Assembly: GCA_031258195.1 (NCBI GenBank)
Contig: JAIRNF010000009.1
Span: 1 to 64,000, forward strand
Source: Prevotellaceae bacterium
Lineage (GTDB): Bacteria > Bacteroidota > Bacteroidia > Bacteroidales > UBA932
Reading direction: 5' to 3'
Length of the DNA stretch: 64,000 bases
Below the pieces are notes generated by a model. It had not been told where the DNA came from and did no database searches. It was given only the letters and a program-made list of their open reading frames with translations. This document shows, one piece after another, positions 3,986 to 7,115 of the stretch (position 1 is the first letter of the stretch; each line of letters opens with the position of its first letter). The position numbers and the translations under genes are program-made.

Positions 3986-5264
3986 ATGGTAGTCTCGCAA
4001 TATACCCACCTGTGTAAAAGCAATGATGCTTTTATTGTTTACAACTCAATGTCGAACGCCTTACTTACGGTTGATCAAGAAATTTATGATCGACTGGATA
4101 ACGCCAGACAGCATAGTACAATGCTTGCTAAAAATACTTTTGATAATGATGATTGAGATTTACTAGAAAGTAAAAGTATTATTATAGAGAATAGCTACGA
4201 CGAATGGCTTAAGTACAAAGCCGCTATTATGCCTATGCGGAGCGTGCAACATAAACTAGACCTAACCATTGCTACTACGCTAGATTGTAACTACAGCCGC
4301 TTTTACTGCTTCGAGAAAAAACAGAAAGCTTACATTACCGAAAAAGTGGTCAACAATATTATATCGCGAATCAACCAAAAGCAAGGTTTAAAGCATTTGC
4401 ATATAACTTGGTTTGGAGGCGAACCACTTATGGCATACGATAAAATCGAATACTTCAATTCGAAACTAAACCTACCTAGTTCGGTATATTACACCACAAA
4501 CCTTATTACTAACGGATATTACCTTACCAAGGATGTTATTCTATCACTAAGAAAAAATAAAATAGATGCCATACGGCTTACTTTAGACGGACTGAAAGAC
4601 AGCCATAATAAACGCAGGCGGTGCAAAGAAACAAAAGATACGTTTACAGCCGTATTCAATAACATTGATACGTTTATGGAGCATGAAAAAAGATATTATG
4701 CTTACCATACGTGTAAACTTAGACGAAAAAAACAAGCACGAGTTTATCGAGTTGTCTAACTTTATTTATCGCCGCTATCCCGAGGCTAAGAACATTCGGG
4801 TTGCCCCTGCGTTTTTTACCGACTCCGGTCCGAACGATTGCAGAACTTGTAATCTAGATCGTAACGCTTTAGCCCGATTTATGCAAAACCTTTCGAAGCA
4901 AACCGGAGATCTCTCACAAATATACTCTACCAATAGGTTTAACGAGTGTGCTGCTCGTAACCCTAATATCTTAGTTGTTGCTCCTAACGGAGGACTATCG
5001 AAATGTCTTGAAACGGTTGGAGACCCCAACTACGAGTTTGGAGAGCTGACAAACCAGACCGTTCTAAACAGATACCTGTATGGAGCAGACCCCATGGGGG
5101 ACGATGATTGTAAAAGTTGTTCTTTTTTACCCATCTGTTTTGGAGGATGCCCTCACAAACGCATGGAAAATAAACTGAACAATACAAAATTCGAGCTATG
5201 TTCTAGCTTTAAGGACAATATAGACAGCTATCTCATTCAGTATGTATCAATGGTTAATAAATAA
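3986..5264 (+). pseudogene. Radical SAM/SPASM peptide maturase, inactivated
   Basis: N-terminal frame from ATG 3986 (MVVSQYTHLCKSNDAFIVYNSMSNALLTVDQEIYDRL...) has an in-frame TGA at 4154-4156, continues into ...DLTIATTLDCNYSRFYCFEKK...HITWFGGEPL..., frameshifts at the A6 run 4686-4691, and resumes as a SPASM C-terminus (...CKSCSFLPICFGGCPHKRM...C). The CX3CX2C motif reads C-NYS-R-FY-C. Confidence 0.8.
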
Positions 5265-5548
5265 ACCATTGCAAAACCGATACCGTAAATAGAAGGCTCG
5301 CCACCTACACAAAGAGCTGCATTTTGCAGCCGACATACCGACAAATCTGACTTTTTCTGATTTAGCTTAATGCAAACAAATACCACAAAAGCGCCCTAAG
5401 GATACACATTGTACTTACTCCGAAATATCAACATAAAAATTGTTGTGTGTTCGGCATGTCTTTAAGCCCGCCCTTGGCTTAAGGTTGTGTGAAAGAAAGA
5501 GCGGCTACCGCAAAGCTTTACGAGTAGGTTCTTATATTATATTATGCC

Positions 5549-5800
5549 ATGAAAACAAAAATTAAAGTAATTGTTGAAGGACGTATGACGGACAACGAAA
5601 TGCAAAGAATTGCAGGTGGAAGTCTTTGTCCTGTTCAACCTGGAGGTGGCATTGCGTACATAGACACGTACACTTCACCAGACTTTGGTGATATTAGTAC
5701 TTGCCTCCAAATATTGTTAATCCCAGCGATCCTTGCCCGGTTGGCTACCTTAATCTGCCATATTGCTCTCCATCCCCAGTACCTTAGATTTGCAGCGTAA
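5549..5800 (+). CDS. Candidate RiPP precursor peptide with GG-type leader (C-terminal extent uncertain)
   Basis: MKTKIKVIVEGRMTDNEMQRIAGG|SLCPVQPGGGIAYIDTYTSPDFGDISTC...; LSDNEM..I.GG-like double-glycine leader, Cys-containing core, about 280 bp downstream of a SPASM maturase remnant. Confidence 0.5.
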   Translation: MKTKIKVIVEGRMTDNEMQRIAGGSLCPVQPGGGIAYIDTYTSPDFGDISTCLQILLIPAILARLATLICHIALHPQYLRFAA

Positions 5801-5847
5801 AAAGAGAATAGTAATTTTGAGAACAAACGGTAACTTAAAAAGAAAGG

Positions 5848-5983
5848 AAACCATTTAGTAAACTATATCCCCTGTAAAGGCATGGAAGCTTATTCCCCTA
5901 TTCAGACTAAATGGTTTTCGTTGACGTAACGACCTGTATAAGAATTTCAACTTGCTTGATTAAGGTTTTTAGGATTACGTCAA
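5848..5983 (+). ncRNA. Candidate IS110 bridge RNA region (two tandem stem-loops)
   Basis: Stem 1: aaaccatttagt (5848-5859) / actaaatggttt (5906-5917), 12 bp perfect. Stem 2: ttgacgtaa (5921-5929) / ttacgtcaa (5975-5983), 9 bp perfect. Both lie in noncoding DNA directly 5' of the IS110 transposase. Inference only. Confidence 0.45.
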
Positions 5984-6016
5984 ATCCCTTTCTTTTTGAT
6001 CTCTAAAAACAAAGTT

Positions 6017-7021
6017 ATGAAAAAGTTCGTAGTTGGAGTTGATGCGAGCAAAGAAAAGCTGGACTGCTGCCTGCTTGATTCAGGAGCTGTTGCCGCGGAA
6101 GAGCAGCTGGAAAACAGCGTATCCGGCGTTAGCCGCTGGCTAAAAGCGGTTCAACAAGCGTACGGCACGGCCGAGCTGCTGGTTTGCGCTGAGCACGGGC
6201 TGTACACCTATCCGCTGTGCCGCGCCTGTGAAGAGCAGGGTGTGGTTCTTTGGCTGGAAAATCCCGCGCAAATCAAGCACTGCTCGGGAGTTCAACGCGG
6301 CAAGAGCGATCGGCTGGATGCCCGTAAAATCGCCCTGTACGCCGCCCGCTTTAGCGATCGGGCTCGGCCGTTCTCGCTGCCGGAGAAGAGCATACAAACC
6401 ATCAGGCGGCCGCTGAGCGAGCGCGATATGTACGTGACCGACAGGGCGAAGTACCGTGCCCAGCTGAGCGATCAGCAGCGGTTTATGAGTAAAGAAGACT
6501 ACAAGGACAAGAGCAAGTGCCTAAAGGCCCTGGTAAAGAAGCTGGATAGGGCTATCGTAACGGTAGAGGTGCTGCTGGATGCTGCTATTGAGGAGAACGA
6601 ACAGCTGTCACACCAGCGCAAACTGCTGTGCTCCGTAGTTGGGGTAGGCGAAAAGACAGCGGTCAAGATGATCGCAGCCACAAATGCCTTCAAGGACTTC
6701 GATGACCCGCATAAGTTCTGCTGCCATGCCGGGGTGGCGCCGTTTGCTTACTGCTCCGGTAGCAGCGTACGCTCTCAGTGGAAGGTCTCTCACAGAGCCG
6801 ACAAAAGCATTAAAGCCTTGCCGCGTATGGCCGCTCTAGCCGCAGCCACTAAAACAAAGGGCGAGCTACATGAATACTACTGCGGAAAGGTAAAAGAAGG
6901 TAAAAACAAGATGTCTGTCTTAAATGCGGTAAGAGCAAAATTAGTACACCGAATGTTTGCCGTTATTAGAAATAATAAAATGTACCAAAATAGCTATAGC
7001 AACCAGTTGGTTTTATCATAA
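6017..7021 (+). CDS. IS110-family transposase (DEDD recombinase)
   Basis: MKKFVVGVDASKEKLDCCLLDSG..., ...AEHGLYTYPL..., ...RGKSDRLDARKIALYAARF..., ...LLCSVVGVGEKTAVKMIAATNAFKDFDDPHKFCCHAGVAPFAYCSGSSV...: N-terminal DEDD and C-terminal Transposase_20-like parts present, no frameshift. ORF track start is 5996; 6017 preferred. Confidence 0.92.
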   Translation: MKKFVVGVDASKEKLDCCLLDSGAVAAEEQLENSVSGVSRWLKAVQQAYGTAELLVCAEHGLYTYPLCRACEEQGVVLWLENPAQIKHCSGVQRGKSDRLDARKIALYAARFSDRARPFSLPEKSIQTIRRPLSERDMYVTDRAKYRAQLSDQQRFMSKEDYKDKSKCLKALVKKLDRAIVTVEVLLDAAIEENEQLSHQRKLLCSVVGVGEKTAVKMIAATNAFKDFDDPHKFCCHAGVAPFAYCSGSSVRSQWKVSHRADKSIKALPRMAALAAATKTKGELHEYYCGKVKEGKNKMSVLNAVRAKLVHRMFAVIRNNKMYQNSYSNQLVLS

Positions 7022-7081
7022 GAATAGGGATGCCTTCAGCCCATCTATACTCACCGCCACTTAGTTGGTATTAGTAAAAAA

Positions 7082-7115
7082 GACCCGCAGCAAAATTTGC
7101 TGCGGGTCTTTTTTT
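7082..7115 (+). terminator. Rho-independent terminator downstream of the IS110 transposase
   Basis: gacccgcagcaaa-a-tttgctgcgggtc followed by T7. Confidence 0.85.

What the first reader, a model, noticed from the sequence alone, without database searches (positions are those of the whole stretch)
5848..5983. Two tandem long-range stem-loops 5' of an intact IS110 transposase: candidate bridge RNA
Seen: a 12-bp perfect inverted repeat (aaaccatttagt 5848-5859 / actaaatggttt 5906-5917) encloses 46 nt, followed 3 nt later by a 9-bp perfect inverted repeat (ttgacgtaa 5921-5929 / ttacgtcaa 5975-5983) enclosing 45 nt. Each enclosed segment can form a short apical hairpin (ggaa-gctta-ttcc at 5884-5896; aactt...aaggtt around 5950-5966), leaving asymmetric internal loops. 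Established: IS110-group elements encode a bridge RNA in the noncoding 5' end, with two guide-containing internal loops (target-binding and donor-binding) in successive stem-loops. Inference: this is the bridge RNA of this IS110 element, with SL1 as target loop and SL2 as donor loop. Guide matches to the flanks were not established.
Basis: partly seen in the sequence, partly recalled or inferred. Interest (0 to 1): 0.6.

Follow-up and report, generated by a model that had tools for sequence, protein, structure and literature searches.

The report
Bridge RNA of a Bacteroidales IS110
The two hairpins are the guide RNA of an intact IS110 jumping gene: their loops spell out both the site the element sits in and its own ends, and more distant relatives carry a row of interchangeable target loops, which does not appear to have been described.

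Summary
Confirmed and extended. The 12-bp and 9-bp inverted repeats are exact and form the only such tandem pair in the window. The fold has z = -4.5. In 8 homologues both stems keep pairing through compensatory changes.

Homologues define the element: 5782-7026, core TA, left end CCTTAGATTTGC, right end CATAAGAATA. SL1 is the target-binding loop: its 5' side (ATCCCCTGTA) matches the left flank (ATCCCCAGTA) and its 3' side (CCCTA) pairs with the right flank (TAGGG). Across homologues, each loop fits its own insertion site better than other elements' sites (0 of 20,000 shuffles, both sides). SL2 is the donor-binding loop: ATAAGAAT equals the right end, TAAGGT pairs with the left end. The transposase keeps all five IS621 catalytic residues. 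This is a new member of a known kind (IS110 bridge RNA), with a three-way-junction layout.

Side result: in a more distant subfamily (transposase about 33-37% identical) elements carry 2 to 5 tandem target loops before one donor loop, and different loops match the insertion site in different elements (0 of 20,000 shuffles).

The parts
5782..7026 (+). whole IS110 element, 1245 bp with one copy of the core (the other core copy is 5780-5781)
   Evidence: left end CCTTAG[AC]TTTGC and right end CAT[AT]AGAATA shared by homologues whose flanks differ; guides match both flanks
5772..5781 (+). left target ATCCCCAG plus core TA (host flank)
   Evidence: matches left target guide 5867-5876 at 9 of 10 positions
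7027..7032 (+). right target GGGATG (host flank); with core it reads TAGGG
   Evidence: pairs with RTG 5896-5900
5789..5819 (+). candidate internal Bacteroidetes-type promoter TTTG-N19-TAATTTTG in the left end
   Evidence: one of 12 such matches in 128 kb of both strands; consensus from PMC7366714
5782..5793 (+). left-end terminal motif CCTTAGATTTGC: right half of the donor and candidate -7 box (TAGATTTG) of the circle-junction promoter
   Evidence: conserved across groups A and B; TTG[GC]/TTTG at 19-20 bp upstream when the ends are abutted in 11 of 12 junctions
5837..5847 (+). closing helix, 5' arm
   Evidence: I4; an outer helix is in the MFE of 16 of 16 homologues, with an unrelated sequence (GGACATGG/CCATGTCC) in group B
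5987..5997 (+). closing helix, 3' arm
5848..5859 (+). SL1 (target-binding loop) stem, 5' arm
   Evidence: 8 of 9 counted pairs show changes on both sides, 98.6% of cells paired
5906..5917 (+). SL1 stem, 3' arm
5867..5876 (+). left target guide ATCCCCTGTA
   Evidence: own-versus-other flank test 0 of 20,000
5896..5900 (+). right target guide CCCTA
   Evidence: short match in this copy (TAGGG)
5921..5929 (+). SL2 (donor-binding loop) stem, 5' arm
   Evidence: 97.2% of cells paired, 3 pairs with changes on both sides
5975..5983 (+). SL2 stem, 3' arm
5938..5945 (+). left donor guide ATAAGAAT
   Evidence: identical to right end 7018-7025; changes together with it in L003
5961..5966 (+). right donor guide TAAGGT
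   Evidence: reverse complement of 5781-5786 ACCTTA; follows the left-end sequence across subfamilies
6017..7021 (+). IS110 transposase, 334 aa; D9, E59, D98, D101 and S247 align with IS621 D11, E60, D102, D105 and S241
   Evidence: Pfam PF01548 and PF02371; NCBIfam NF033542 144.4 against cut-off 140; IS621 8wt6 E 2.9e-21
7017..7026 (+). right end CATAAGAATA (left donor half), overlapping the stop codon, with core TA 7025-7026

Best explanation
5837-5997 is the bridge RNA of the IS110 element at 5782-7026. Transcribed from the left end, it forms a three-way junction: a closing helix plus a target-binding hairpin (SL1) and a donor-binding hairpin (SL2). SL1 places ATCCCCTGTA against the bottom strand of the left target and CCCTA against the top strand of the right target. 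SL2 places ATAAGAAT and TAAGGT against the two halves of the abutted element ends in the excised circle. The DEDD-serine recombinase then exchanges strands at the TA core. Shown here: structure, covariation, ends, guide-site matches, conserved catalytic residues. Inferred from IS621 (PMC11208160, PMC11208158): transcription, circle intermediate, RNA binding by the protein, strand exchange.
For: Inverted repeats unique in the window; fold z -4.5; covariation 0.468 against shuffled 0.216, 12 pairs changed on both sides, 0 of 500; same fold in 16 of 16 homologues. A covariance model built on group A also finds group B and extra copies at ends of this family. Own-flank matching by the SL1 guides 0 of 20,000 on left and right. 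Donor guides match element ends and follow them across subfamilies. Transposase IS110 by Pfam, NCBIfam and IS621 alignment, all five catalytic residues kept. Intact target sites for homologue L019 break at the predicted ends: left L085, right L076. In the window, joining the flanks with one core gives an open frame to a stop before a terminator hairpin.
Against: Window alone: the right guide matches only TAGGG, and with free positioning 388 of 126,569 other positions score as well as the real target, so the proof rests on the homologue set. Donor core pairing is imperfect (LDG continues TT, the donor reads TA). Within group A the closing helix is a purine/pyrimidine tract with only one compensatory pair; its support comes mainly from the unrelated sequence in group B. 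No Rfam hit. Only one full copy in this genome, so no within-genome target comparison. No expression data.
Confidence: 0.95

Rival explanations
1. The hairpins are a cis-regulatory 5' leader of the transposase (attenuator or translational block), not a guide RNA.
For: SL2 ends 33 nt before the ATG (6017), and the outer helix 3' arm lies just upstream of it.
Against: A leader would not match each copy's insertion site or follow the element ends. Relatives keep the architecture while the loop positions that face the target vary.
Confidence: 0.03
2. Chance inverted repeats in AT-rich DNA, or relics of nested repeats.
For: Such repeats exist in AT-rich sequence; 9-bp ones occur nine times in 64 kb.
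Against: Unique tandem arrangement, fold z -4.5, covariation 0 of 500 shuffles.
Confidence: 0.005
3. It is a bridge RNA, but the closing helix is incidental and the RNA works as two independent hairpins, as IS621 was modelled (with a separate 5' stem-loop).
For: In group A the helix is an A/G tract facing a C/T tract and 82.8% of cells pair. In IS621 the two loops seen in the structure come from two RNA molecules, TBL 3' end and DBL 5' end about 80 A apart (PMC11208158).
Against: All 16 homologues fold with an outer helix, and group B pairs there with unrelated sequence.
Confidence: 0.2

Closest known systems
IS621 bridge RNA (E. coli IS110 group; PMC11208160, PMC11208158; PDB 8wt6)
   Same: RNA in the long left end upstream of the recombinase; target loop first, donor loop second; left guide matches the bottom strand, right guide the top strand; dinucleotide core; DEDD-serine catalytic residues; promoter formed at the abutted ends.
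   Different: Core TA in this copy (donor TA, target NA in relatives) instead of CT; an extra helix closes both hairpins into a three-way junction, where IS621 has a separate 5' stem-loop; the promoter motif is Bacteroidetes-type (TTTG/TAnnTTTG); transposase only distantly related (phmmer E 2.9e-21).
seekRNA of IS1111/IS110 elements (PMC11187229)
   Same: Noncoding region upstream of tnp, guides to both target strands in IS110 order, natural reprogramming between relatives.
   Different: Described as a 70-100-nt RNA with the target-matching regions; here the conserved unit is about 160 nt and includes donor guides.
TIGR-Tas guide arrays (PMC12045711)
   Same: Tandem dual-spacer hairpin units resemble the target-loop arrays found in distant relatives of this element.
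   Different: Tas proteins are not transposases. That paper describes IS110 bridge RNAs as a single two-stem unit, which the window's RNA is but the array elements are not.

Membership tests
IS110 family (IS110 group) | DEDD RuvC-like domain plus serine Tnp domain | tested here: met
   PF01548 and PF02371; NF033542 above cut-off; D9, E59, D98, D101, S247 align with IS621
IS110 family (IS110 group) | long noncoding left end, short right end (IS1111 is the reverse) | tested here: met
   left end 235 nt (5782-6016), right end 5 nt beyond the stop (7022-7026)
IS110 family (IS110 group) | no long terminal inverted repeats, no target duplication beyond the short core | tested here: met
   ends CCTTAGATTTGC and CATAAGAATA share only the core with the flanks; one core copy in the joined flanks keeps an open frame; intact sites for homologue L019
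IS110 bridge RNA | two successive hairpins with internal loops, supported by covariation | tested here: met
IS110 bridge RNA | first loop complementary to target, left guide then right guide | tested here: met
   0 of 20,000 shuffles for each side
IS110 bridge RNA | second loop complementary to the abutted element ends | tested here: met
   core position only partly complementary
IS110 bridge RNA | promoter reconstituted at the right end-left end junction | tested here: inconclusive
   TTG[GC] or TTTG, 19-20 bp, TAG[AC]TTTG across the junction in 11 of 12 elements; in the window TTGG, not a full TTTG
IS110 bridge RNA | RNA is expressed and bound by the recombinase | not testable with these tools
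   no RNA data
IS110 bridge RNA | match to a published covariance model | tested here: inconclusive
   no Rfam 15 match; the published models themselves were not on hand

The most novel reading that the evidence does not exclude
The window's element belongs to a Bacteroidales branch of IS110 in which the bridge RNA is modular. The window copy has one target loop; a related element (L037, 49% identical transposase) has two with the same specificity; a more distant subfamily has arrays of 2 to 5 target loops with different guides before one donor loop. Any loop of an array, not only the one next to the donor loop, can direct insertion, so one element carries several alternative addresses. This would be an IS110 counterpart of a guide array and would make the proposed link to TIGR arrays testable.
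Probability: 0.7. Interest if true: 0.75.

Novelty: new member of a known kind. Interest (0 to 1): 0.5.

Why it matters
The window element is a fully anatomised bridge-RNA recombinase from Bacteroidales, with target and donor guides, core, ends and a candidate host-type promoter assigned, so it can be tested and reprogrammed directly in Bacteroides laboratory strains. The closing helix raises a clear structural question, because in IS621 the two loops used in one complex come from two RNA molecules. The arrays in distant relatives would show that an RNA-guided transposon can hold several target addresses at once.

Tried and rejected
Rfam at gathering and relaxed thresholds gave nothing useful: one weak rli60 match, E 2.8. 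Viral contigs and phage records gave no relatives. The group A+B MAFFT alignment (A1) misaligns the SL2 and outer-helix arms between groups, so covariation was counted on group A alone. The window's right target alone is too short to be significant, so I did not rest the claim on it. A regulatory-leader reading was considered and rejected because the loops track the insertion sites. I first read the mini-elements in L059/L060 as evidence of a second right end inside the donor loop; internal deletion is simpler, so this is left as an observation. L019 has flanks from two different genes, so its joined frame is not a true single empty site; only the break positions are used. The joined RiPP-like precursor frame in the window needs a one-base frameshift upstream, so it is weak support only.

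Full report
What was checked first. In the whole window there is one perfect inverted repeat of at least 12 bp with a 35-60-nt loop, and one tandem pair of at least 9 bp; both are these. The strand folds at -46.2 kcal/mol against -28.9 for shuffles, z -4.52.

The gene next to it. The ORF 6017-7021 (334 aa) is an IS110 transposase by Pfam and by NCBIfam NF033542, 'IS110 family RNA-guided transposase', 144.4 bits against a cut-off of 140. Its nearest solved relatives are IS621 (8wt6, E 2.9e-21) and ISCro4. The IS621 residues D11, E60, D102, D105 and S241 correspond to D9, E59, D98, D101 and S247. The genome has one full copy.

Ends of the element. Their noncoding ends share CCTTAG[ACG]TTTGC on the left and CAT[AT]AGAA[TC]A on the right, beyond which the sequences differ. 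In the window these are 5782 and 7017-7026. The left end is therefore 235 nt and the right end 5 nt past the stop codon, the IS110-group layout. For homologue L019, an intact copy of the left target gene in the same genome (L085) and an intact right target in another genome (L076) break at the predicted positions. L019's two flanks come from different genes, so I use only the break positions.

Structure across homologues. In the eight sequences of group A (the window and its seven closest homologues) the SL1 stem pairs in 98.6% of cells, with changes on both sides at 8 of 9 pairs. SL2 pairs in 97.2%, with three such pairs. The structure scores 0.468 for covariation against 0.216 in shuffles, 0 of 500 reaching it, and every slid register is far worse. 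The outer helix is weaker within group A (82.8%, one compensatory pair), but eight more distant elements (group B) form an outer helix of unrelated sequence, GGACATGG/CCATGTCC, and all 16 single-sequence folds contain one. A covariance model built on group A finds group B at E 1e-8 to 1e-11. The window copy belongs to the training set, so its own score is not evidence.

Target guides. In the window SL1 reads ATCCCCTGTA on its 5' side, and the left flank ends ATCCCCAG-TA. Its 3' side holds CCCTA, complementary to TA-GGG of the right flank. For 14 elements with a left flank and 12 with a right flank, each SL1 fits its own flank better than other elements' flanks: mean 6.57 of 8 against 5.34 on the left and 5.12 of 6 against 4.19 on the right, 0 of 20,000 shuffles each. 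Relatedness between elements raises the off-diagonal scores, so the test is conservative. For the window copy alone the fit is only moderately unusual (388 of 126,569 positions as good when guide position is free), so the case rests on the set.

Donor guides. SL2 carries ATAAGAAT in its 5' internal loop, identical to the right end 7018-7025, and TAAGGT in its 3' loop, the reverse complement of ACCTTA at the left end. In L003 the right end reads CATTAGAATA and the loop TATTAGAAT. In distant subfamilies the left end changes to CGTTTAG or CTTTTAG and the right donor guide changes with it. The donor core is only partly matched.

Promoters. Abutting the ends puts TTTG or TTG[GC] 19-20 bp upstream of TAG[AC]TTTG in 11 of 12 elements; in the window it is TTGG. 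A full TTTG-N19-TAATTTTG lies inside the window's left end at 5789-5819, one of 12 such matches in 128 kb of both strands. The consensus is that of the Bacteroides primary sigma factor (PMC7366714). This mirrors the junction promoter of IS621 but is not tested by RNA data.

Conclusion on the finding. It is a bridge RNA in the sense of PMC11208160 and PMC11208158: every defining feature that gave a clear test result was met, and the circle-junction promoter and the match to published models stay inconclusive. Expression, binding and recombination were not testable. It differs from IS621 in core, promoter type and the closing helix. In IS621 the TBL and DBL of one complex come from two RNA molecules and sit about 80 A apart, so a junction that ties the two loops together is worth a structural test.

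Where the relatives led. In a more distant subfamily (transposase about 33-37% identical to the window's) the left end holds more than one target loop before the single donor loop: one in L031 and L032; two in L023, L024, L026, L029, L030, L033, L095, L096 and L099; two intact ones and remnants in L088; at least four in L089/L028; five in L027. The units share a GTGAACTA...TATTAGA frame but differ in stems and guides. Scoring each loop against the element's own left flank, usually one loop fits and the others do not. It is the first loop in L023, L026, L033, L088, L095, L096 and L099; the second in L030 (9 of 9); the second of five in L027; the second of four in L089. L024 shows no clear match and L029 a weak one. 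Across 11 distinct elements the best loop scores 8.09 of 9 on its own left flank against 5.85 on others, 0 of 20,000 shuffles. The right flank is weaker: 27 of 20,000. L037, closer to the window at 49%, carries two target loops with the same guide, as after a recent duplication. PMC12045711 contrasts TIGR arrays with IS110 bridge RNAs as 'a single two-stem unit', and my searches of the held library turned up no description of tandem target loops; preprints and most subscription papers are not held. The simplest reading is that loops duplicate, diverge and serve as alternative addresses. That loops other than the matching one are functional is an inference. The window's own element has a single target loop.

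Noticed in passing
L027 LE 911-1397; L089/L028; L030, L033, L023, L095, L099: IS110 elements of a distant subfamily carry arrays of 2 to 5 target-binding hairpins before one donor hairpin; different positions in the array match the current insertion site in different elements.
   Followed up: partly
L037 (and L038), - strand, 43 and 165 nt after the left end: Two target loops in tandem with the same left guide (T/CATGGAAA), as after a recent duplication.
   Followed up: partly
L023-L033 right ends, e.g. L029 just after the transposase: The right end of the array subfamily also holds target-like and donor-like hairpins (CAATCGGTTGAACTATC...CCGGATTG; GTTAGAGTAATAGAC...GTCTAGTCAAAGTAAT), suggesting a second bridge-RNA-like unit.
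   Followed up: no
L060, L059, L072 (G047); L058/L068 (G112): Transposase-less miniature or internally deleted copies: left end plus target loop, in L060 bounded on both sides by sequence that matches its own guides. Possibly mobilised in trans, possibly deletions after insertion.
   Followed up: partly
L002 1504-1626 (own genome, contig 26): A 123-bp internal piece of the window element (5966-6088, 98% identical: half of SL2 plus the first 24 codons) sits inside unrelated sequence.
   Followed up: no
window 4229-5781 and 7027-7071: The element sits in what looks like the 3' end of a small RiPP-like precursor gene with a GG leader (MKTKIKVIVEG...IAGGS) downstream of a frameshifted radical SAM/SPASM maturase; precursor and maturase both carry frameshifts, so the operon may be decaying or the assembly has indels.
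   Followed up: partly
window 7076-7114: Perfect 19-bp terminator-like hairpin with a T run just right of the element.
   Followed up: no
L003 and L011 left ends: The left terminal motif is repeated in tandem (CCTTAGCTTTGC twice, 24 and 13 nt apart), as if one element had used another element's end as a target.
   Followed up: no
L050 1350-1440 and L060 flanks (G047); L009 and L010 right flanks: Several copies sit in or near repeated palindromic sequences (CGTCCCGTAGGGACGG; TCCCCGTAGGGGATTCATA), suggesting REP-like targets, as for IS621.
   Followed up: no
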